Assembly (NCBI GenBank): GCA_020055645.1
Contig: CM034548.1
Coordinates: 8,742,001-8,806,000 of the forward strand
DNA: 64,000 nt
Origin: Tomocerus qinae
Lineage: Eukaryota; Arthropoda; Collembola; Entomobryomorpha; Tomoceridae
Direction of reading: 5' to 3'
Shown here: positions 37,591 to 64,000 of the stretch, piece by piece
Layout: every line of letters starts with the position of its first letter
Numbering within the stretch: the first letter of the stretch is position 1
Translations under genes and position numbers: made by a program
The notes under the pieces: generated by a model
Database searches by the model: none
The model's input: the letters and a program-made list of their open reading frames with translations, nothing else
Told to the model about the DNA's origin: nothing

Positions 37591-38975
37591 TAAAAATAGA
37601 AACATCTCCAAATTTGGGTTTGTATAGGCGTAGGTATGGACGTTTTGAGATGCAATGGGTTTTACGGGCAGAAGCGACATTTTTTGCGTTTTAAGCGATT
37701 ATATCAAATTTTCAGCCTGTTTTCGACTTATTTAACCAAAAAAGACTAAACTTTTTCTCACCACGGGCGAATTCATTTAGTCGAAATTTCCATATTAAGT
37801 TTAAGTCTCCTAACCGAATCGTTTTGTATATGTGGGCCTAGGTCTTTATAAAGGTAGATTTTTGTTGATTTTGTGATTCTTGGAACGATGTTATTTGTAA
37901 ATGAGCTCTAAAAATCAACTTTGGGTTTTGAAAAGGTGTGTTAAGCCAGAGCACAATGGGCTTTATGAGCTTTTCCAAAAGATGAGAAGAGCCGTAGAAC
38001 GAGTACCTAGTAAAGTGTTAAGGAAATAAGCATAAGAAAAAAAAAGTCTGCTCCGGCACATTCAAAAGAAAATAGTTTCAAACTATTAGTGAAAAAAATA
38101 ACACAATAATTTTATTTACATATAAATCGTAATAAGTGTGTAATTAAATATATAGAGAGTGCACATTTTGTAAACTGGAGTTGGACATATACATACAATA
38201 CATAGTAACGATACATTCCCAATTGCATATATTTATTATATATATATTCATTGGCTAGTCACTCCAATGTACGTATTTGTTCAAATTATGTACAATGGAT
38301 TAATATTCTTACTAAGATAATGATGAACAATAATTGTTATGGAGTGCGTCATGAAACGAAAAACATTTTACCAAAATCTTTAAACAGTAATTCAACAACT
38401 TATTAACTGTAATCACACCGCATCGTTAGTTATTTGGCATAGGTATACATTTTACTTTTCGTTTGAACTTTCACTAGTAAATTATGGATATTTTGAGGTA
38501 CAAGGTGCACGTCTAACTAAGTTTTAGTCGTGTAGTAGTAAATATTTTAATTTTTAACATGTGTTAAAGATTTTAATCTTTCAATTAGGCAGAGGTATAG
38601 TCGGTACCGACCCGAACAATATTTTATTTTTTATATTAGGCTATTTGACGTAAAATGCCAGGTAACAAGAATACTTAGTCAATTGTGAAGTAGAAAGTTA
38701 ACTTAGAAACACAATTAAATTAAAACCCAGAAAATGCAAACTTAATTTCCAATTTGTCTGCACTTCATTACAGTCAACATTGAAAATAGCGATCGTCTTG
38801 GGTAGCTACAATTAAATAACTGAATTTATGTAAATAAGTTTGAGATTGTATTAACCAGGCTAATTAATGCATTCATGTTACCTGAAATTACATTTATTCT
38901 TGACATACGATTATTAATGTCATACTAGGTCGGCTACCTTAGCTATTGTTAGTTACACAAGGAATGTACACGGAA
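37591..38975. other. AT-rich sequence without a visible gene
   Basis: No long open frame, RNA gene or recognisable transposon could be seen. The first few hundred bases after the satellite have homopolymer-rich, unique-looking sequence. The rest is AT-rich intergenic DNA. Confidence 0.6.
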
Positions 38976-39236
38976 CAATCATTTCTATCAACAATGTTGC
39001 AGGAATGAATTGCAAATGACATTCATTTATGTCAGCAATGTTGGAGGAATGAATCGCAATCATTTATAATAACAATGTAGGAATGAATTACAATCATTTA
39101 TATTAACAATGTTGCAGGGATTAATTTCAATCATTTATACCAAGGACATTGTAGGAATGAAATACATTCATTTACATCAACAATGTTGTAGGAACGAATT
39201 GCAATTATTTATATCAACAATTTTTCAGGAATGACA
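38976..39236. repeat. Imperfect minisatellite, unit about 38-45 bp
   Basis: The phrase ATCAACAATGTTGCAGGAAT, followed by a variant of GAATTGCAATCATTTATA, recurs about six times with substitutions and small length changes. It is a short, degenerate tandem repeat unrelated to the 112-bp satellite. Confidence 0.85.
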
Positions 39237-39757
39237 AAAAGAATTTCCCTTACTTAATACATGAAACAACAATCAAATTTCTATAGTTACATATCAAAAT
39301 TTGCGCTGGTATGTCTTACTGGAATGTCTTCGTACTCAATTATTACTTTCTTACAGTTTTGTATTGGAAGTAAACCACAAAATGTAATTTTAATCTTTTG
39401 GTGGAATGGTAACTTAAACTGCTTCAAAATAATTTTACCTGTTGTAATACTACTATATTATTTTTGTACCGAATATATTTTTTCAGATAAGTAAAAGAAT
39501 TCCCCCATTTGTCTTCCTTATACTCTACATTACAACAATACTAAGTACTTTTCATACATGTGTATCATACATCAGTAAGTACAAAATTTCAGTGCATTAA
39601 TTCATAAGTATGATTGCGCTTACAAATTACTGGGCACTATTCCAAAAATGTATGAAGTATACAACTTTGGGTGAAGTGTCCCTACTAATGTTAAGCATAG
39701 GAAAGACTTAGGTACAGGCAGAACAACTACAACAATTTATAAATACTAAAACTACGA

Positions 39758-40055
39758 ATACAAATAGCTTGTATACTTATAGACACAACTATATTATACA
39801 AATAGCTTGTAATATTATAGGCACAACTATATTATACAAATAGTTTGTATACTTATAGGCACAACTGAATTAACGTTTTCCCTTATGTCCCCCAATGCAT
39901 ACCTTCATTTACTAATTACTAAATACTTACGAAGGCGTGCTTTGGGTTACATAAAAGTGAAAACATTAATTGTCATAATTGTACAAATAGTTTGTATACT
40001 TATAGTTACAACTATATATTATACAAATAGCTTGTGTAGTACACTCATAGACATA
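39758..40055. repeat. Second minisatellite, unit about 38 bp, in two clusters
   Basis: Units containing ACAAATAGCTTGTATACTTA followed by TAGGCACAACTATATTAT repeat three times at about 39,758-39,870 and about twice more at 39,983-40,055. Unrelated sequence of about 110 bp separates the clusters. Confidence 0.85.
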
Positions 40056-40974: not shown

Positions 40975-43900
40975 TCAAATCAGCCAATGGGAAGGTCCTT
41001 GTCCATCGTCATATTTGACCCTCAGCAATAAAGACTTCTCAAATGCATCTGTGCTGGCGAGAACAGATGCGCCAATATAAGATGCATGGTATCTGTAAGG
41101 AGACGCTTGAACCTAAGGTTAATAAAATTAGAATTAATCAGCGGACATTGTATTTATTGTGCAATACGTATAGGCAATACGTACGTACCTATTTTTTATT
41201 GTAAGAATCAATACTTTTTAATGAAAACCTTACTTTGGGTTTTAAATGAGGAGGACAGAGTTTAGTGACTTCAAATTGTAAACGTTCCACAAAACCAGGT
41301 ATTAATGTACAACCTCCCACAACGAACAGATTTTGAGACATTTCTTTTCTAATGTCAACCCCACAATCCTAACAATGAATAAAGAATAAATATAATTCAA
41401 GCATTGTAACAAGAATGGTTTTCATAAATAATTACCAGCAACAAACTGCCATTACCTGCAAAGACTTATAAATAACTTTGGCGATTCCATCACAATCTAG
41501 ACCATAATATCCAGGATCAAATAATCCCTCCCCAACGCCTCTCAATACATCTTGATTGACGCCAATCAGGTTCGAAAATGACAAAACGTCCCTCAAGTCC
41601 ATTTCCACAACAATTTCTTGGGAATCTTGAGATAGTTTCCGAGTTCCTCCTCCGTTTATACAGATGAAGTTTTCGGATATAAATCTTAATACCAAATTCT
41701 CAGCGGGAGTAGACAAATACAGACCATTTTCCTTTAAAATAGAAAACAATATTATTCACTATGTTATGCCTAAATATATATTTTATGGCATCAGCGTCAA
41801 TTATATTCTTACTTGTGGTCCAAGGCCCTGTCTCAAAGCATGTTTTAATGGTTGGCCTCCTAAAGGAGCTCGACCCCACGCGTGACTTAAAACGAAACCT
41901 TGGCTCACTGGAACAATATCGCAACGTTCACCAACATCACAAATAATTCCATTATCTGCCGAGTATGCCCAAAATGACATAACGCTTTGATGGCACAAAA
42001 GCGCACTTCTAACCTGGATTGTAAGAGAATATTTACATCACACTCTTTTACAAATACTTAATTCGTAGTCAAAGGTATTTAGAATTTTAGCGCATTCTTC
42101 TCACCTGAAAAGTGTGGAACAACAACTGTAAAATACTTTTACGGCAAATACTGTCAACTTTGCGAGGGAGATTCATAATAACTCTGTAATTTTCAGGTTT
42201 TAAGTTCATCTGCTTAAATATTTTCAGTAAAAAGCCTTTAATAGCGGAAACGTCCAATGTATTCTATAGAAAAAATATAAGCATTAATAAAATATACACT
42301 ATCAGCTGGTATAATCAAAACCTATTTTTCTGAATGGAAATATAAGAATGAAAGCTGTTAACTACATCAAAAGGGCTAGTGGGTCCGTGCTTACAAGACC
42401 GCCCACGTCACCATTCGATCAAGGGCTCACTTTCATTCTTCTCCAATCCCGGTTCAGAAAATAAAATTGGTTTAAACACATTTTACAATTCCAATTAAAA
42501 ATTACCTGGCACATTTTAGATGTGCATTCAAATGGAAATCTTATTTTGGACTTCTTCCTATTTTCCGGCAAATACACGTCATTCCCATAAATTACACGAC
42601 CAGTTTCCAAGTTCTCAGACATAACGGCTCCAAAAAATACGGCGGGTAAAGTTGCTGTATATAAAATATGCTGAGTATTAATTTTTAAACTGATTAAGTT
42701 TAGCTTATATTACAAACATGCACAATTATTTGTATATTAACATACGCTGGTGAGTCAAAACTCCTGCTCGAATGTTTGTCGATCCCAAATCAATTAAAAA
42801 TATGTCTCTAAAAGTTGAAGGATTGTTAGCTAATATTGGGGTAGAGAAAGTCACAGATGATAATAACTCTTCTTGTAAGGCAGCAACCCATCGCCCAGCA
42901 TCAGCCGCAGAAGGACATTGAAACACATAATAGTGGCCTTTCTGCAAAATAATTACAAATAACCCTAATCAGTAATCATAATCACTTAATTCACCATAGA
43001 AGTTCACATTTTGAAGAAATATAATATAAAGAGCTTACCCCATCGTCTACTCCGATGATCCTGTTCGTCATACATTTGCTCTGTTTAAAATAGCATCAAT
43101 TATTATATTTTCAGAGTCACTCAAAGTCACAGTTAGTACAATGATCGTTGGCGCGAGTCACATTTCCGTGTCTGTCGATTAATAAAAATACCTGAAAATT
43201 CTTTGGAATTTTAAAGTATTTTAGAGTTGAAAACTGTGAAGATGAACCTCAGGCAGGTGGACAAATTCAGTTTCACATACTTTTAATAATAGGTTGTAAA
43301 TAATCGGGACAAGGACAAACAGAATGAGCCATTGGAACGTAACACAGATTTGCTGTTATCCAATGGCTCACTCATGCATGGCCAAGTAAGTATTCAAGTT
43401 CTAGAACTGCGAGGGTGTGTAATTGATATTTGACTAATATGCCCACGGGATGTCACGAAGACGCCTTCCTGGAATGAAACCACAATTCCCAATCCCATTG
43501 AGTTTGTATCATTCTCCTGAACTGAGACAAGTGTTGCGTGATGGTGTGTGTGGTGAGTGGTGGCCGGGGCATCTTCGCCCTCGCCCACATTCACAAACAC
43601 AATATCTAATGCACAGAAAATAATTAAGTAGCTCTTGTCAGTGTTCGGTGACCAGCTTATTAAAATTACCTGCTAAAATGGCTGAAATGGTTGAAACCTT
43701 TTGTTAACCAATGACTAAAATGGCTGAAATGGTTAAAATGGCCATGGCTACAGATGATACTAAATGAGAAAGGCATTCTTGATTTGGCGGGTAATTCAAA
43801 AAATCTAATTTTTTTTGGCCATTCTAGCCATCAGGCATTTTAGCCGTCTGCGTCCGATTGGCCAAAATCATTTTTAGCCGGCTAAAATGGAACACTGGCA

Positions 43901-46900
43901 AAGGTGTCTAGTTTATGGTGTAGCCTTATTTTTGATATCAATAATGAATATTGAATGTAATTGGGCTGTTTTAGTACTGCCATTACACTCAGGTTCGTTT
44001 CATTGTGATTTTTATTGATGGATACGAGAGATTTTCTTTAGAAGATATCAAGGGGTGTTGTTAGGGAGTATGGGTGTAGTCTCTAAGGCGGGAACTACGA
44101 TGGACTGGGGACTGCCGACGTACCGGAGTGCCTCTAGAATGACCAATCTCATGGTCTCTGTTTGGGTTGTCCGATCCGACGGTTACCATTGGCCCCTGGA
44201 ACCATGACTTTACCGTGTCCCTAAATTCAGGGTTCAAAATAAGAGCTGGTTTAAAAGGAGAGAGGGCCTTAAAGCAACCGTCTGTCTTCAAATATTTCAT
44301 CCACCGTGTCCGTAAGGTAAGGCAGATTGTGGCAGATTGCCCAACTTGACTCATTTCTTCGTATTTTATTTTTTTGGTGGCAGGTGTTGCCGCTAAGACG
44401 CCCTACTTAAGCACTGATAGGGTGTGGCGTAGCCTGCCGTTAATCAAAGTCTTTCTAAGGGATTGGGTCAGGGCTATGTGACCTGCGCCTTTGTCGTCAA
44501 TTATATTAAATATGCTGACGACATTTATGAATATATAATTCTAAAACGGTATCACATATTACCTGTTCTTTACCAACAAATTCTGTAGGGTCTAAGAAAT
44601 CGACACTCCCGCCAATTAAATTAATGGACTGAAATATATCTTGACAGTCTTCTTTCTAGAAAAACCAATAAGGAGATTGTATTATAGGACACACCTCGAC
44701 AAAAACAAGCATTGAGGCAGGTAATTGAGATTTTAACTTATACCTCGTATCCACTAATTTTTCCTGAAGCCACCACAAAATATTTCTTTCTCCAAGCATT
44801 CCAAAATGTCCCCTTCTTTCTATTGCCACTGAGAATGTTTAGGTGGCCAGCCATAAGGTCATTTGGAGAATTTCCATGGCTAACTTGTTTTGGTTCACAC
44901 ATGGTATACAGTCTTTTGAGTAGTGGTTCCTATAATCAAATAATTTTTGTAAAAATTTGGCAAAAAGTGTCTAGAAATGATTTATATTATTCCTACATAC
45001 CGGATCCCATTCATTTGGAATGCGAATGTGTTTTGTGATGATTTCATCTGGGCAAGATTCCTCTTGCGTATCATCAGCTTCATTATCAGCGGCGTATCCC
45101 ATCAGATTATTTGTGGAATGATCGTAATCCGTAACATTAAAATGGTTGACATGTTCACTCACAGATTGTTTTCTTTGGCGAATAGTTTCTGAGCAAAATT
45201 CGGCACAACGTTCCAATTCCTGGTCACTATCCGATGACATTTGGCTTTCTGTTTCTTCTTGTATAACCTCTAACCCTATAGAGATACATTGATTATCTAT
45301 TTTGTGAGTACACACTTCATTACCAAAGCAAATCCCACAGAATATACGAAGAATGTTTCGTCGCCCAAGAGAGATGACTTACCAAAATCATTATATGAAC
45401 TATCTCTAAAATCATCAGCAAAAAAGTCGTATTCTGATTGAGGAGAATTATTTTCTTGTTCTGTGTCATCCACAGCATATTCATACTCCTCTGGATCACT
45501 TCTGTCCTGCTCAACTATTTCAACCTTGTTTTTAGGAGTTTGGGCTAGTATTAGTTTAGCAGCTTGAGGAATCAGACTTCCTATAAATGCATTTAAATCA
45601 AAAAATTAGAAAAACATTTCAATGTGATAAAGGCAGTAGGAGGCAGGTTTCAATACTATAAAAGACAAAACTTAAAGTTGTCAAAATTATTTTCAATCAG
45701 ATGAAAAAAGCATGCAGCAATCCTGTAATTTTCCACCGTTATTTTACAAAAAAATGAAATAAAGCAGACCACTTGAACACTTACCAACAGAAACAGCAGC
45801 ATTTGATTTTGGCTGGGCGTAAATGCACTCATTGGACTTAGGCACGTCATAAATAATGCTCTGAATCACAGACAACAAAAACCATGACAAACGAAATAAA
45901 GCGCACACAATTTTGACGACAAATGATAAAATTATACGCTTTTGAAGCCAATGTAGCAACAATGTATTAGCACTCGCCACTTGCAAAATGTTAATGAGTT
46001 CACCAATGTACGGATTATTTATCGTGCAAATATTTAGTGGTATTTACAGATTATTCGCTACAAACGACGATTATTGGGAATGAACCACACCATTTTATAA
46101 CTAGGGATAACACAACAATCTAATACGAGTGTTTAACACACTTCGCAAATGTCTGTCCTTGGTTCATTTATGATGAGCAAAAACACCTGCCTCAAATTGA
46201 ACATCTCATAACTACAACTTTTGTCTTGTTTATTCTGAAGTTTACTAAGCGGAACAGTACAACATTAATAACACAGGTAAATAGCAATCCCATTTGGCAG
46301 TTAAAATAAGGGTTACCTTTTTCGCATCCTAGCTATCTTTATCATTCGTGTTTACTACTATTGCATTTCTTCATTTTTAGACAGCACATCAGCAGATATG
46401 CATGGCTGAATATTTAATAGACGATACTCGTTGATAAATTACATGAAATGGTTTTGTTTGCACTTCATACTAGAGGAACAGTTGTTCTAAGGTCTTAGAT
46501 ACGTGCATTCACCTACTATGCCCAATATCTACACACATAATAATGCATATTTTTCTGTTTTGCAAACTAACAATAATTGATATTACCAACTATTAATTAT
46601 TATTCATGAAGGCTTATGACAGCATATAGAATACATAAATAGAAATAAGAATTGCGTCATAAGAAAAACGTATAGCCTGTGGCAGGTTATTCTCTTTCAT
46701 AAACAAAACAAGGAAAAACTTTTGCACACGTTCACACGTTTACTTATCCTACATATAAAAACTAGCTGTATACATGTAATAAATATAATGTTTTGAACCG
46801 TTGTGTTTGATCAGGAAAGAGAACTACTATGATTTAGTTAGAATTTCAAATCGCTTACTGAATTGGCTCTAGTATTTAACCTATTTTACTAACTGGTGAG

Positions 46901-47655
46901 CCAGTTCAACGACGCTAACAATGACTTTTTTACAAACTGCAGTCTTCAGTTGTAACACATTTTAACAAATACATACACTATTATTAATCCCTAATTTAAT
47001 TCTTAGGGGGTGATTTTGATAATAATAAACTGTGTCTAATTGCACTTCGATAAGTTAAACCGGGCAAATTCATTCTACGCATCAGATCTGTTTTACTTAC
47101 TTTCAAACTCCGGTATCAAATGCATCACATATGTACTGTACAGTGTACCAACAGCGAATAAATTTTACAATTTGCACGATTACTAATGATTCTTTTTACA
47201 ATATTGACAATAAGACATAATATTACTCTATTCTAATAAACATGAAATGCTAACTGTAAACATGAAATACTTACTGACTATAAAAGTACGAAACACTACG
47301 TATACTTTCTTATATTCCCTTCTACAATTCCGCACGCTTCCAATGATGCAAATATTCACATAACACAGGCTTCTAACGAGTAATAATTTATTATTGCATT
47401 TCAAAACAAAATGGTATTAGTTAACTGTTGCTGTTAAGTAAATTTGCAAAATGCAACAAAGGTGTGAAAATTAGTGTGTGTAACCTTGTTTAAATGATGG
47501 TTCGAAGAATGTTGCTCATCATAATGAGATACATTTTCATATCGGCTTTCACAGTCGTCTAAGGAGCTAACAGTTTCATATAAGGCAGTTTTTGTAGTCC
47601 CATTAGACGTTCCATTAATGGATGACGCGTTCTTGTGCAGGATTTTTGAGCTCAT
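40975..47655 (-). CDS. PH-domain plus actin-fold protein, 14 coding exons, 764 residues
   Basis: Exons, in transcription order: 47655-47485, 45860-45785, 45580-45383, 45275-45001, 44929-44744, 44655-44563, 43080-43039, 42941-42746, 42654-42506, 42263-42105, 42013-41813, 41731-41456, 41368-41234, 41112-40975. All junctions are GT-AG, all phases agree, and the last exon ends in TGA. Residues 1-240 are an acidic, Ser/Asp-rich tail with tyrosine motifs (YETV, YENV, IYDVP, IYAQP). Residues about 267-374 read as a PH domain: a basic WRKKYFVV strand early and the closing helix AGRWVAALQEEL. Residues about 392-764 match actin end to end: phosphate loop IDLGSTNIRAGVL, then LPAVFFGAV, PVSQGFVLSHA, adenosine-site VVGGCTLIPGFVERLQFE and C-terminal YIGASVLAS. 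The second phosphate loop (CDVGERCDIVPV) lacks the usual DG pair, so ATP handling may differ. The start ATG is supported by the tail and phase-0 junction, but exon 1 has a weak donor (GTTACA). Function inferred only: a membrane-phosphoinositide-linked, actin-like scaffold. Confidence 0.88.
43394..43605 (-). other. Exon-like open frame inside intron 6 of the PH-actin gene
   Basis: An open frame of about 70 codons follows an acceptor-like TGTGCATTAG. It includes DAPATTHHTHHHATLVSVQE and GLGIVVSFQEGVFVTSRG. No convincing donor follows, and the flanking exons 6 and 7 join in phase without it. It could be an alternative exon, a remnant of another gene, or chance. The composition is higher in GC than the surrounding intron. 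Confidence 0.3.
43639..43897. mobile_element. Candidate MITE (259 bp) with CAGTGTTC terminal inverted repeats
   Basis: CAGTGTTC at 43,639 is mirrored by GAACACTG ending at 43,897. The interior is itself an imperfect inverted repeat built from GCTAAAATGGCTGAAATGG-like words on the left and their complements on the right. Ends beginning CAGTG suit the hAT superfamily. The flanking eight bases do not form a matching target duplication, so the family call is tentative. It lies in intron 6 of the PH-actin gene. Confidence 0.55.
44040..44510. other. GC-richer foreign-looking fragment in intron 6
   Basis: About 470 bp with base composition clearly above the surrounding AT-rich intron, with words such as GGGTGTGGCGTAGCCTGCCG. 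It holds a 97-codon minus-strand open frame (44,061-44,354) with no recognisable motif. It may be a fragment of an interspersed repeat. I could not assign a family. Confidence 0.35.
45861..47484 (-). other. Intron 1 of the PH-actin gene (1,624 bp)
   Basis: AT-rich sequence between the tyrosine-motif exons 1 and 2, with no repeat or gene recognised. Its 3' end has a strong pyrimidine tract and CTGTGATTCAG acceptor. That tract is responsible for a hydrophobic-looking open frame at 45,744-45,986 that should not be read as a membrane segment. Confidence 0.65.
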
Positions 47656-47700
47656 TTTTGTTTTTTTACAAAACAGTTTTCCCAGACTAAGATGATTTCA
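47656..47700 (-). other. Probable 5' untranslated part of the first coding exon
   Basis: On the minus strand a good acceptor (TATATTTGCAG) ends at 47,701, 45 bases before the ATG. The context before the ATG is ACAAAA. This suggests at least one more, non-coding, first exon upstream that I could not place. Confidence 0.45.
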
Positions 47701-49666: not shown

Positions 49667-51964
49667 TGTAATAAATAATAAATAATTGTCGTTAGAAAAG
49701 TACAAAATGACTTACACGTATTAAATTGTGATATCCGTTTACATGTTGATGCAAAACTCTTTTAAGTAGATTGCTGGTAAAAAATGGCAAGAAGATTTTG
49801 ACAACGGCAGCTTCAATTGAATTAAGTAAATCAGTCATAGACTTGAAAATAAGTTAAAGGTTGAGTAATTGTTTCTGGAATGGATTTAGAGATTCACTGG
49901 ATCTGGATTTGTATTGACTGAGAATGTGGAACCAGTATCAATAAAGGACCGTGTAAAAAACTGAAATTGATAATAAAACATAATCATTTACATAAATAGC
50001 AATGAAATATGAACATAAACGTAATTTTCTCATTACATATTGCTTGTTGCTGGTAATCATTTTACGAGTTTTCATTAAAGTATTTTTTATTTTGTGTCAT
50101 GTTCAGTGGGGATATAAGAAGTAATAGTTATTAGATCAGATCAAACCAAAACTTAAAATTTAAAAAAAACAAAGTTAAAGTCTCAGTTTCAAACCTTATT
50201 AATGCCATGAATCACCTCTAAGACTGTAGAATATTCAAAATTGTTACATAAAATTATGCATACACACTTTACAATTAAAAAACGAATTAAAGTGTAAAAA
50301 CTGTAGCAATAAAATAACCAAATAGTAAATACTGGTGTTGACATTTATGTAGATTGACATATTGAGGATGTCAGTAACATTTTCTAATCCAGCCAATGAG
50401 GGTTATGGTATTATACGTAACCGACCGGTCTATGGTCTAAATCCGTCATTCTTTAATTGCTAGATTAGACGACTAGAGGTCTGACAATACCACTATCATA
50501 GTTATCAGTTGTCAGTTTTTTGTAGAAAAAAATGTATCAAATCAGTAACACAGAATAAAAAAGGGTCAATCAACATCTTAAATCAAAAATAATTAAAAAG
50601 TATTAAAATACACATTATGCTGAACATTATTATTGTTATTGTTCACAAAGGATGAAGTCACCATAATGATTGGTTGATGACAAGGTCATCATCTATTGAT
50701 CCTACACACTATTAACTTACATTGATCGGATAAATATTGCCTACTTTCAAAATTCAATGAACTGTCATTGCGGCCAACTCATCGATTTAATACCTGATCA
50801 ATAGCTTTAAAGATGTTGCTGAATTATATTATAATTAAATTTAAATATGTTTCCATTGAGAATAAAAACTGCGTACCTTATTATTACTGTTTAGAAAACA
50901 GCAAAGCAAATCACAATTATCACCGCTTTTGTCCTATCTATAACTAGCTTATGACTAAACAAAAGATTTAAACTGCTCTAGAAAAATGTGTCGATGCACG
51001 ATTAAGGCTAAAAATTAAAAAGGGGTAAGTAGTAAGTAATACTGTTTACCTAGGCAGACTAGGTAGGTTGTATTAGCAGTAGGTAGCAATACAAATACCT
51101 AAGTTTTACCCTAGTACCATAGTACCGTAGTAGTAGTACTAGATAGGGATAGAAATTGGGAATAATAGGAAGAGGACGATAATATTATTATTACCTTTGC
51201 AATAAAGATGGGATCAAATCAAATTATTTTACCGAATAATCGAATTATGTCAGAGAAACAGACATTTGGATTTTGGATAGGCATAATTTTAAATGAACAA
51301 CAATAAATAACAATCAGCGCATTTTTGGGAAAATCATTAGAATCATTAGACATTGTTTGTTGGAAATAAAATACTACAAAAAAGTAATTATGAAGAAGCT
51401 GAAGAAGTATGAAAACAGAGATCCAGTCTCTATTAGACAGGTAACAGAGTAAATTTTTATAGGTAGAACAGGTAGGTATTCACCTCTTAGTGCATAAGAA
51501 GAACACCAGATGCTACCCCACTATCAAAAGTAAACTAGCAACCAATGTTAATGCAACAGAGCAACATTCCCAAGGACTGGGAGACAAGAAATTGTTTCTT
51601 TCTATTATTGTTGCCATTCCCTTTCTATCCCAGTGCGTGCAAGGTGCAAGATGAGATGAAGATGAAGAAGATGACTGGGAGATGAGATGGCATTTTGCTA
51701 TGATATGAGATTGAGATGATGCAAAACCATACAAGTTACAAAATGCATAGGTAGTATGATTGCCTACCAACATTTTAAGACTTGTCCTTTTAGGTCACAA
51801 TAACAGCATATGTAACGATCTCTGCCACCGTTGAATGCAGTAGAGACCTTACTATTAAATTGCTCAGGGATTACGGTCCATAATATGAGCTCCCCAGATA
51901 GTTCTCTTAATGATTCTTTACCAAATACTAATAATAAATAATATGGAATGAGTACCAAACCAGA
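47701..51964. other. Intergenic AT-rich region
   Basis: No gene, RNA or recognisable transposon was seen apart from the microsatellite at 49,635. The upstream promoter and a non-coding first exon of the PH-actin gene probably lie here. TAGTA-rich, low-complexity sequence occurs near 51,030-51,150. Confidence 0.55.
49635..49663. repeat. (AT)n microsatellite
   Basis: An uninterrupted run of about 14 AT dinucleotides. Confidence 0.98.
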
Positions 51965-52134
51965 ATGCAGCCGATGTCCAGATGAATCCACAGGAACATT
52001 TACAATCACTAATAAGTCTGATTATATTGTACAAAAGATTGAGTTGAATTCTCAGAGTAGTAAAGCAATATTTGTGTTCATAATTTCCTGTTGTCACTTC
52101 CGTTTTATTGGATTCATCTGGACATCGGCTGCAT
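51965..52134. repeat. Perfect 26-bp inverted repeat with 118-bp spacer
   Basis: The 26 bases at 51,965-51,990 (including GCCGATGTCCAGATGAATCC) are exactly mirrored at 52,109-52,134. Both strands therefore read the same CSRCPDES-like peptide at the arms, which is a by-product of the symmetry. It could be a small foldback element or an inverted local duplication. Confidence 0.9.
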
Positions 52135-52658
52135 GTAAGCAAAAGCAATGCTCAAGCGCTTATGCCGACTCAATTTCAACACAAAAAGCTTCATCATGCA
52201 ATATTAATTGACTAATAAAATAATGATTAGCTAGGTTGAATAGTTCTAAATAAAAGCAGAGCATAAATGCATATCAAGAAACATTTCTGAGTCACTTAGA
52301 AATAGTAGCCTAAATACGTCCTTGAAAGATTGATTCCATAGATTTATTAATGCTGACTTTTTGAATCTATAATTACTACCCATTCCAAGAATAAAGTTTT
52401 ACCGGTAATGCTAAAGATATGGTTTGGTAGTCAATTATCAAAATTAAGTGAATTTTTCCCAGCTTAGGATACCGTAACCACATTTACTTAAAGGCAAAAG
52501 ACTTTAATCTTTATGAGTGTATGACGTCATTGCCCCCTCCGAAATCAACTTCTAAATACGGCACTGATTTGTGAGGCATTAAAGTCTTGTTTAAATGCTG
52601 ATGACATTGGACCAGTCTCAGATTTTATCTGATATTCCATATCTTCTATTCTAGAAAC

Positions 52659-54214
52659 ATGTCGACATTTGAGGAAAGTCGGTTGAGGGCCCTAGAAGAG
52701 GAGAAAACTCCGAAATAAAAAGATTAGAGTCCCAGGCTCCGACGCAAATCCAATTTAACTCCTCTACTGGCGATGGTTGGGAAAATGTGACAATCCGGAC
52801 CTCCATTGAAAATTCGGTAGAATCTGTCAAACCCGGCGGACTATTTGAAGTTGTTTATATAATAGACACAAGCGGAGAACTTCGGGAATACAAAAAATAT
52901 AGACAAATGCAGATTGGAGCTACTAAAGTCGACAACAACGACATAAAATATGTTTCTTGCTAGGGAAGAATGATAAATCGCTGGGAGATTTTAGAGGAAA
53001 GGTGGCGTACCTAAGACAAGTGTACGACCATAGACAGTTTGACGCAAAGGTTGAAGTCAAACGTCTCAACACTCTCGAATCACCTTTCCTACAATGTCTG
53101 AATATCGAACCTAATGGTGATTATGGGACACATTGTTCGAATGAGACTTGTAATGCGTCTCAGGTGAGAAAATATGAAACACGTGAAAATTTTATTTTAA
53201 TCGAAGTAGGAATTATTCTAATTACAATGTTGAATAAAGTATTAAATGACTTGGTTTTCAATCTAATAGACGAGAATGAGAATTGACGTACTCATAGATA
53301 ATATTCCAATGAATTCGTTATCCCTGTTAAATGTATTGCATTCGCGGACCGTGCGCACAGATTCACCCGGACCCGGATTCATCGAGTGTTGCTCTAAGCC
53401 CGGCAAAGAACAAGTTGATTATCTTGGGCAATCGAAAGTTATTGAAATCGATCAACAGATTTCAAAATTTGATGTTTTCGCGACGTAAGTATGAACATCA
53501 TTCGACTTGGTGCTGCATCGTTACCGATATCAAAGAAAGACGAGTAAGGTTATGCAAGTCAATACATATAATATTGTCAAATTTTGAGATGTGATAATCT
53601 CCTTTCTTTTATTATTTTTCATATAGATTCTCTTATTATTTCTTATTCATTCATCTCTTTTTATTAAATTATTCTCAAGCTCCGTGGAGTTGGGCTAGAA
53701 TTCGGCAATAAAAAGGGCCATATTTAAAACTTTGAACCTTTTATCTTTAGACGAATTTGACTGCCTATTCCTTGGCTTTGAAGATACGGAGATGCGCACT
53801 AGCTGAACTCCTACAAACGGTAACCACCACTACCTTATCGAGTACCGATCGGATCCCAGCTAGCTTAGCTAGCTCAGGACTAAATCGCATGGTTTAGCTG
53901 TACATTCCGATAATCACATTATCAAATCACTACCAATCCAGATAAAATTATAACACACTGGTCAAAAAGTATATTTATGGCAATAATTTAGCAAAAAATG
54001 CTGTAACTTATTGCAATTGTTTAATAAAAGTGATTTTACAGAGGTGGTCGACCTAAAATTCGAATTTCAAGATGACCAAGTCAAAATGCTGGCGCTCACA
54101 GGGTCCTATCAAAAGGTTTGGGATTTTATCCTATTTGTAAAACAGACGAGAGCAAAAAGCCGTTTAGCCCTTCACCTATTTGATGCACTACATTACCCAT
54201 TCACCCCAATGTAA
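52659..54214 (+). pseudogene. Unrecognised gene relic, broken, with exon-like segments
   Basis: Three stretches have coding character and splice-like borders. The first (52,659-53,163) starts at ATG, includes FEVVYIIDTSGELREYKKYR and FRGKVAYLRQVYDHRQFDA, and ends at a CAG/GTGAGA donor. The second (53,361-53,484) includes SSSVALSPAKNKLIILGNRK. The third (54,042-54,214) includes VVDLKFEFQDDQVKMLALTG and ends with a stop overlapping AATAAA. The first segment is not open in a single frame, so the locus looks broken, with about two breaks. I do not recognise the family. It could be a decayed host gene or an old integrated virus-like fragment. No database-type evidence is available here to decide. 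Confidence 0.5.
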
Positions 54215-54219
54215 ATAAA
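54214..54219 (+). terminator. AATAAA poly(A) signal after the gene relic
   Basis: The hexamer overlaps the stop codon of the last coding-like segment (54,042-54,214), which supports the idea that this was once a transcribed gene on the plus strand. Confidence 0.45.
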
Positions 54220-54361
54220 GTAAAAATGGTAAACAGGTCTGCTTTTCAAAAATATCTCAGTAATGTCATCACACTTTGTTTATGTACATATGAAATTATT
54301 GAGTAAGCCCATTCATTTTATCCAATGACTTGTATCAAACCTATTTTAATTCGAAGATTGG

Positions 54362-54604
54362 ATTGGGCCAATAGCAATGCAATCGGATTGTCTTTCAATT
54401 GTTAAGTTTCTTATAAGGCTAATATGTTTCCAAAGAAGGTGTAATTTTAGGCGGGGATATGTTTCCAGTGCAATGGTGCAGCATATATCAAGTGAGCTAT
54501 ATCTGTGTAGACGCTGCACCACCCCACTTAAAACAGATATAAGACTTAAGATAAGAAACTCAACAAGTGAAAGTCAATCCGATTGCATAGCTATTGTTCC
54601 CAAT
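54362..54604. repeat. Inverted repeat with 46-bp arms (42/46 matches)
   Basis: The arm at 54,369-54,414 (contains GCAATCGGATTG and AAGTTTCTTAT) is complementary to 54,551-54,596 at 42 of 46 positions. Shorter matching ends (ATTGGG and CCCAAT) lie just outside. A further GGTGCAGC/GCTGCACC pair lies in the loop. It could be a MITE or a hairpin-forming transcript. Confidence 0.85.
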
Positions 54605-55092
54605 TTAGTACTAACCTTTTCTATCAGATAAATATCCCACTATTTTTTAGTAGTTTTTGTCCTATTCCAATAAAAATCATCACAAATGATGCTTTCATTT
54701 TGTAAATATTCAGGAAAGAAGTAAAACAATAGTGATAGGACACTGAATGTGTGAATGTCAATACCATATTTGTCATTTGCGACAATCAGATAAAGGACTG
54801 AAAAAATACCCTTAAAATATTCAATAAGATTGAACCATCATAATTGTTTTACATTTTTTTCTGGCCCCCATGATAAAGCATCGAAGGAAAATGAATGGAT
54901 GTCACCCCAGTTAAAGCTCCTTTGGTAAAAGATATTCCGGAAGACCAAAGGTGTACGTCGTACATCCAATTATGAGTAGAAAAACAACTGGCAGAACCCG
55001 GGAATTTTATCAATAATACCAATAGCCAATAACACAATGGTGTCGTTTAACATCTAATGAGGGGTCTCACTTTTTTAGGTTTTAATTACCCA

Positions 55093-55379
55093 ATGAGAGT
55101 GGAGAAGAAAGGAGAGGCCGTTCCACCTTCAGGATTTGAAAGTAATTGGTCGAGACCATAGTAGTGTCTGGAGTGCCGACTAGATTAAGGGAGATGTTTT
55201 TGGTTGAAATTCGACAACTGACGGGTGTTAGCAGCGATAAAATTTTTCATGGACCCGATGTCTCACGAGTAATCATTCATTTCAAGTCCAAGATCTCTGC
55301 AGCATTAGGACTTCAAAAATTACAGCAAAGATGGCGCAAGGTTCAAGCAAGAGCCTTTGTTCCAAAGATGCACCAATGA
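55093..55379 (+). pseudogene. Broken coding fragment, unrecognised, ends in a stop
   Basis: An ATG-initiated stretch (MRVEKKGEAVPPSG) is followed by a longer open stretch with regular hydrophobic spacing: VETIVVSGVPTRLREMF, then DVSRVIIHFKSKISAALGLQ, and a basic tail ending in a stop at 55,379. The alternation resembles a small RRM-like alpha/beta fold, but that is only an impression. The two stretches are not in one frame, so at least one break is present. It may belong with the relic at 52,659-54,214. Confidence 0.4.
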
Positions 55380-55513: not shown

Positions 55514-56084
55514 CTTATGGCACACAGGAATTTTGTATGGTAAGAAATTTTTGTAAACAGTCTTTTTTAGTATGGTGTGTTATAGAAAACCGTATGAAAC
55601 TTTCTGGTAGTTAAGGGAGTAATGTATGGTACTAATAAGATAGCACTGAAAAAGTCGCCAAGTTAAAAGGTGACAAAGAGGTTATATCAGATACAACTAA
55701 AGCCATACCTCTCGGACAGCGAATAAAAAAGAAGCCGACACGAGCTCTAAGACGACAATAACTTTACCTTAACTTCAGTGACTTATCATTATCAACTGTT
55801 TCATTTACTTGATTATTGAATTGACATTGACTAATGTTACTTGTGTATCTAATTTGCTTTTCTTAATTTTCTAATGCATACAAATAAAAATTATGTACTT
55901 GCAATGACGAACTATTTACATTTTCTATGTCACGTCCACCATTCTTTGTCTCACAATCCTCATAGTACCATACATTATTCCTTTAACTACCAGAAAAATT
56001 CACACGGTTTTCTATAACACACCATACAAAGTACGACTGTTTACTAAAACTTCTTGCCATACAAAATTCCTGCGTGTGTCATAA
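55514..56084. repeat. Long inverted repeat, arms ~122 bp, 327-bp spacer
   Basis: The arm at 55,514-55,635 (with GGAATTTTGTATGG, GTATGGTGTGTTATAGAAAA and TAATGTATGGTACTA) is mirrored at 55,963-56,084 with scattered mismatches and a few small indels. Similarity fades outwards. This is the shape of a foldback element or MITE. No terminal motif or target duplication was identified. Confidence 0.88.

Positions 56085-60440: not shown

Positions 60441-64000
<3,560 letters not shown>

What the first reader, a model, noticed from the sequence alone, without database searches (positions are those of the whole stretch)
40975..47655. PH domain fused to a full actin fold
The gene model gives one continuous 764-residue protein with a PH domain (about 267-374) directly followed by an actin fold (about 392-764). 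I know of no standard Arp class (Arp1-Arp11) with an N-terminal PH domain. It could link a phosphoinositide membrane surface to an actin-like module, and may be an undescribed or lineage-specific cytoskeletal protein.
Basis: partly seen in the sequence, partly recalled or inferred. Interest (0 to 1): 0.85.

Follow-up and report, generated by a model that had tools for sequence, protein, structure and literature searches.

The report
PH domain fused to divergent actin-related protein
One intact multi-exon gene, probably from an animal, encodes a PH domain (a type that often binds membrane lipids) joined to a divergent actin-like fold, a combination I did not find described and which may be a membrane-recruited relative of actin.

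Summary
On the minus strand, 14 exons (47655 to 40975) join through 13 GT-AG introns into one 764-residue frame. Pfam finds PH at 267-371 (E 4e-8) and actin (E 3e-39); profile alignment spans residues 395-756 of the actin fold. The key point is exon 8: one uninterrupted exon carries the end of the PH domain and the first actin phosphate loop, with no methionine between residues 337 and 424. The actin part is 29% identical to actin over 286 residues and joins none of the Arp classes tested with firm support. Only 10 of 23 nucleotide-site positions match actin, as in Arp6 and Arp10, and the second phosphate loop is one residue short. Best reading: a non-canonical actin-related protein placed at membranes by its PH domain and unlikely to form filaments alone. 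Lipid, nucleotide and actin binding and expression are untested. Relatives could not be sought in eukaryotes: the collections scanned are viral and prokaryotic. Ten searches of a partial paper library listed no such protein, some listings being capped.

The parts
47485..47655 (-). exon 1, residues 1-57, start codon; in-frame stop just upstream at 47698-47700
45785..45860 (-). exon 2, residues 58-83: doubled IYxxPKSN motif (Y61 in YDVP, Y71 in YAQP)
45383..45580 (-). exon 3, residues 83-149, acidic tail
45001..45275 (-). exon 4, residues 149-240, acidic tail
44744..44929 (-). exon 5, residues 241-302: start of PH domain, basic stretch 277-291
44563..44655 (-). exon 6, residues 303-333: middle of PH domain
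43039..43080 (-). exon 7 (42 nt), residues 334-347: PH domain, mildly supported
42746..42941 (-). exon 8, residues 348-413: end of PH domain (349-369), linker, and first actin phosphate loop DLGSTNIRAG (398-407), all in one exon
42506..42654 (-). exon 9, residues 413-462: actin subdomain 2 region, shortened
42105..42263 (-). exon 10, residues 463-515: actin fold
41813..42013 (-). exon 11, residues 516-582: actin fold, second phosphate loop DVGERCD (541-547), one residue short
41456..41731 (-). exon 12, residues 583-674: actin fold
41234..41368 (-). exon 13, residues 675-719: actin fold, VVGGCTL (690-696) at the adenosine-site GG
40975..41112 (-). exon 14, residues 720-764 and stop

Best explanation
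This is an intact gene for a non-canonical (orphan) actin-related protein with three parts: an acidic, probably disordered N-terminal tail with tyrosine motifs, a PH domain, and a complete but divergent actin fold. Shown: the single reading frame, both domains, their fusion inside one exon, and the lack of firm assignment to any Arp class tested. Inferred: the PH domain binds a phosphoinositide or a membrane-bound partner and places the actin fold at a membrane; the fold may still bind a nucleotide but hydrolyses it slowly or not at all; with a shortened and divergent subdomain 2 it does not form filaments by itself but contacts actin or another Arp, most plausibly as a membrane-attached cap, seed or scaffold, somewhat as Arp2/3 and Arp11 sit at pointed ends. 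The tail may be a tyrosine-phosphorylation docking site (Crk/Nck-type YxxP, recalled), which would tie recruitment to signalling.
For: Gene model and fusion. Class: the best 60 of 156 PDB sequences matched are all actin chains (the other 96 not shown). blastp bits of the actin part: ACTB 137, ACTR1A 110, ACTR2 90, ACTL6A 86, ACTR10 78, ACTR6 62, ACTR3 61. Residues private to one class and shared by it are spread over all classes, 5-13% each. Fold: 15 of the 24 positions invariant in seven actin/Arp sequences are kept. Nucleotide site: all six positions of the set that are invariant in those seven (D11, G13, D154, G156, G301, G302) are kept, as are S14, Q137, R210 and E214. Subdomain 2 is 31 residues, against 37 in actin and 17 in Arp10; pointed-face positions are 21% identical to actin with 8 of 33 gapped, barbed-face positions 34% with 5 of 50 gapped. 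PH: RKKGTFWNAWRKKYF at 277-291, basic residues where PH domains usually hold lipid head groups (recalled).
Against: No test of lipid, nucleotide or actin binding; no expression data; no second species. Only 10 of 23 nucleotide-site positions examined match actin (ACTR6 and ACTR10 10, ACTL6A 8, ACTR1A 17), K213 is S and the second phosphate loop is one residue short without a histidine at or next to 161, so even nucleotide binding is uncertain. The better conservation of the barbed face is also seen in five of the six other Arps compared, ACTR6 being the reverse, so it is weak evidence for a pointed-end role; the interface lists are recalled. Ranking actin first is not proof of orphan status: with ACTL6A as query, two distant Arp4 chains rank just below an actin. 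Two YxxP motifs were reached in 112 of 2000 shuffles and the doubled motif in 18 of 500; the one YxN motif is what chance gives (1195 of 2000).
Confidence: 0.55

Rival explanations
1. Two neighbouring genes, a PH protein and an Arp, wrongly joined in the gene model.
For: No transcript data. Intron 6 is long (1482 nt) and could hold a promoter.
Against: Exon 8 holds the PH end and the actin phosphate loop without interruption, and no methionine lies between 337 and 424. A break at intron 6 would split the PH domain, whose score needs exons on both sides.
Confidence: 0.04
2. A divergent ortholog of Arp10/Arp11 (ACTR10, the dynactin pointed-end cap) that gained a PH domain.
For: The best tree of 11 rows joins it with human ACTR10, support 79/86; both have a shortened subdomain 2 and share the local pattern WGxxPLGG. 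By phmmer ACTR10 ranks fourth of seven.
Against: Both are very long branches and the program warns of a false join. AU tests reject none of six other placements (p 0.08-0.21). ACTR10 ranks fifth of seven by blastp and shares no excess of private residues (16 of 153; ACTL6A 18 of 142). Dynactin membership could not be tested.
Confidence: 0.13
3. A family already present in public protein databases in many invertebrates, simply without a paper or a name (compatible with the best explanation, so odds do not add to one).
For: An intact 14-exon gene with a preserved fold suggests long selection; the collections scanned hold no eukaryotes by design, so finding nothing there says nothing.
Confidence: 0.6
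4. The PH domain no longer binds lipid and serves as a protein-protein module, and the actin fold is a nucleotide-free pseudo-actin scaffold.
For: Many PH domains bind lipids weakly or not at all (general knowledge); the PH part has no close relative of known structure (best E 0.09, PLEKHA3); 13 of 23 nucleotide-site positions differ from actin and the second phosphate loop is short.
Against: Basic stretch 277-291 kept; D11, G13, S14, Q137, D154, G156, G301 and G302 kept.
Confidence: 0.33

Closest known systems
Conventional actin (ACTB)
   Same: Fold aligned over 345 columns of a seven-sequence profile; D11, G13, S14, Q137, D154, G156, R210, E214, G301, G302 kept
   Different: 29% identity over 286 residues, 13 of 23 nucleotide-site positions differ, shorter subdomain 2, long N-terminal extension with PH domain
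Arp10/Arp11 (ACTR10)
   Same: WGxxPLGG pattern, shortened subdomain 2, nearest in the tree though unresolved, same number of nucleotide-site matches to actin
   Different: The human protein has no PH domain (417 residues); keeps K18 and K213 but lacks Q137; no excess of shared private residues
Dictyostelium filactin
   Same: Long N-terminal extension before an actin domain (PMC2441452, passages seen)
   Different: Its actin domain is extremely close to conventional actin (same passages); 'PH domain' and 'pleckstrin' do not occur in that paper's main text
Drosophila Arp53D, non-canonical Arp
   Same: Divergent actin fold with an extended N-terminus; there the N-terminus is necessary and sufficient for localisation, and the fold did not detectably join actin structures without it (PMC8291977, passages seen)
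   Different: Extension of about 40 mostly unstructured residues, not a PH domain (same passages)
Plant Arp8 (F-box plus actin fold; recalled)
   Same: An actin fold fused to an unrelated N-terminal domain
   Different: F-box, not PH

Membership tests
PH domain (PF00169) | Curated Pfam score reached | tested here: met
   34.0 bits whole protein, cut-off 25.1, profile positions 4-102 of 105; 36.7 bits for exons 5-8 alone
PH domain, phosphoinositide-binding subset | Binds phosphoinositides | not testable with these tools
   Only a basic stretch at 277-291 seen
Actin superfamily (PF00022) | Curated Pfam score and whole fold | tested here: met
   135.2 bits, cut-off 27; hhalign 345 columns, E 2e-32; the first third alone is weak
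Conventional actin | High identity and intact nucleotide site | tested here: not met
   29% identity; 10 of 23 nucleotide-site positions
Arp1, Arp2, Arp3, Arp4, Arp6 | Closer to that class than to actin | tested here: not met
   All score below ACTB; but distant true members can also rank at or below actin (two Arp4 chains)
Arp1, Arp2, Arp3, Arp4, Arp6 | Forms a clade with that class | tested here: inconclusive
   Not in the best tree, but AU does not reject any, p 0.08-0.21
Arp10/Arp11 | Forms a clade with ACTR10 | tested here: inconclusive
   79/86 support, long branches meet
Arp10/Arp11 | Part of dynactin pointed-end complex | not testable with these tools
   none
Arp5, Arp7, Arp8, Arp9 | Closer to that class than to actin | not tested
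   Not in the tree; none is among the 60 of 156 PDB matches shown
Non-canonical Arp | Divergent actin fold outside canonical classes | tested here: inconclusive
   Outside the six Arp classes tested by score, by private residues; tree unresolved
Non-canonical Arp | Male-germline expression, young age | not testable with these tools
   no expression or species data

The most novel reading that the evidence does not exclude
A new Arp class: a phosphoinositide-recruited, tyrosine-phosphorylation-regulated actin-related protein that nucleates or caps actin directly at membranes, so that membrane targeting and the actin-like seed lie in one polypeptide instead of being split between a nucleation-promoting factor and Arp2/3.
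Probability: 0.2. Interest if true: 0.85.

Novelty: new variant of a known kind. Interest (0 to 1): 0.55.

Why it matters
Canonical Arps work inside multi-subunit complexes whose membrane recruitment comes from other proteins (general knowledge). An actin fold carrying its own PH domain would be a self-targeting module, and a direct way to ask what an actin fold does when anchored to a membrane. It would also add domain fusion to the list of how non-canonical Arps arise in animals.

Tried and rejected
Search for relatives: whole protein against viral and prokaryotic contigs (17 pattern stretches: 31, none a relative) and a degenerate pattern of the first phosphate loop in viral contigs (0). 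Expected for a eukaryotic gene. The whole genome is not held. A satellite pattern in viral contigs, to learn the source, found nothing.

Arp10/11 membership: suggested by the WGxxPLGG pattern and the tree, not upheld by blastp rank, private residues or firm support.

Structure prediction and fold search: not run. The tool admits only proteins that the window's DNA gives letter for letter; the spliced protein does not meet that, so I did not send it.

Literature: ten searches; no paper on a PH-actin protein in the rows listed. Some listings were capped (20 of 72; 20 of 122; 10 of 27; 7 of 8). Passages were read of PMC8291977, PMC2441452 and PMC11817969 (there the actin and PH Pfam entries belong to two different mussel genes); the other papers were seen as listings only. 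The library lacks most subscription journals.

NCBIfam: only sub-threshold matches, the best syringactin at 48.6 bits against a cut-off of 300.

Full report
The window is eukaryotic. Its first 37 kb are a tandem satellite of about 113 bp; from 38 kb on, 2-kb bins have G+C of 29-38%. No genome is held for it. Open frames at 62.7-63.8 kb match the Hsp70 family, and one of them is closest in the PDB to Hsp105 (E 8e-34, against 5e-19 for Sse1), which suggests an animal. That is inference from few available structures, and I could not name the organism.

The gene. On the minus strand I built a model from splice sites and frames. All 13 introns hold an in-frame stop if retained, and random chains of AG..GT-bounded segments of the same lengths carried 26 stops or more in 300 of 300 draws. 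An in-frame stop lies just upstream of the start. The frame is undamaged, so this is not an obvious pseudogene. Transcription is not shown.

The domains. Pfam places PH at 267-371 and actin on the C-terminal part. Removing exon 6 or 7 lowers the PH score, exon 7 by only 2 bits. Profile alignment to seven actin and Arp sequences covers residues 395-756, and 15 of the 24 positions invariant in those seven are kept. The first third of the fold is the weakest part: alone it misses the Pfam actin model and draws a sub-threshold DUF4910 match, yet aligns to the actin N-terminal half by profile comparison with E 6e-5 and probability 65%. It holds the first phosphate loop, DLGSTNIRAG (398-407).

The fusion. 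Exon 8 (42941-42746) encodes residues 348-413: GHYYVFQCPSAADAGRWVAAL (349-369), the end of the PH domain, and after 28 residues the phosphate loop of the actin fold. No methionine lies between 337 and 424. An actin protein starting at its own ATG would have to begin inside the PH domain or lack its phosphate loop. The two-gene rival is therefore unlikely, though only cDNA can close it.

Which Arp is it? The 60 shown of 156 PDB sequences matched are all actin chains. As a yardstick, ACTR10, ACTR2 and ACTL6A queries find their own class first and actin after; but two distant Arp4 chains rank just below an actin, so actin first is not proof of being outside a class. Against seven human sequences the blastp order is ACTB, ACTR1A, ACTR2, ACTL6A, ACTR10, ACTR6, ACTR3, and the phmmer order ACTB, ACTR1A, ACTL6A, ACTR10, ACTR2, ACTR3, ACTR6. 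The tree of 11 rows joins it to ACTR10 with 79/86 support, but the program flags two long branches meeting, and six other placements are not rejected, p 0.08-0.21. With ACTR10 left out, its place is unresolved. Private residues shared with each class: ACTB 7 of 66, ACTR1A 10 of 84, ACTR2 12 of 98, ACTR3 8 of 130, ACTL6A 18 of 142, ACTR6 8 of 153, ACTR10 16 of 153. I call it an orphan with respect to these classes; Arp5, 7, 8 and 9 were not in the tree.

Function. Of 23 nucleotide-site positions examined (list recalled), 10 equal actin: D11, G13, S14, Q137, D154, G156, R210, E214, G301, G302. That is the same count as ACTR6 and ACTR10, more than ACTL6A (8) and fewer than ACTR1A (17), ACTR2 (19) and ACTR3 (17). 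K18 is R and K213 is S; the second phosphate loop is one residue short, and no histidine lies at or beside 161 (the place of the gap differs). I infer at best nucleotide binding with poor or absent hydrolysis. Subdomain 2, which makes the pointed-end contact in filaments, is short and divergent, while the barbed-face positions are somewhat better kept (34% against 21%); five of the six other Arps show the same lean and ACTR6 the reverse, and the interface lists are recalled. The PH domain keeps a basic stretch, RKKGTFWNAWRKKYF. Its nearest solved relatives are far (PLEKHA3, E 0.09), so its lipid preference cannot be guessed. The 240-residue tail has 18 basic and 49 acidic residues and in exon 2 a doubled IYxxPKSN; YDVP is a classical Crk-type SH2 docking motif (recalled). 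Shuffles reach two YxxP in 112 of 2000 and the doubling in 18 of 500: a lead only.

Novelty. A full actin fold behind a PH domain is not among the Arp layouts I recall, nor in the passages seen of three papers, nor in the rows listed by ten searches, several of them capped. Because no eukaryotic sequence collection was available, I cannot say whether it is lineage-specific or a widespread but unnamed family; I think the latter likelier than not. I rate it a new variant of a known kind, the non-canonical Arp.

Noticed in passing
1-37403: Satellite array of about 113-bp units (about 325 copies to 36357, with a 224-bp dimer period), filling more than half the window.
   Followed up: partly
62731-63840 (+): Open frames of an Hsp105/Hsp110-type chaperone gene near the window end.
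   Followed up: partly
38975-39241 and 39758-40019: Two small tandem arrays, units about 37 and 38 bp, between the satellite and the gene.
   Followed up: no
55521-56076: Inverted repeat with 121-nt arms, 87% complementary, 314 nt apart, possibly a miniature transposon; a second pair at 54369-54596.
   Followed up: no
44562-43081: Intron 6, 1482 nt, one of the two long introns of the gene, holds a 113-codon open frame (44061-44402, minus strand) with no Pfam match and repeated AAAATGGCTGAAATGG-like stretches; possibly an inserted element.
   Followed up: no
51942-55379 (+): Five open frames of 75-119 codons without Pfam matches.
   Followed up: no
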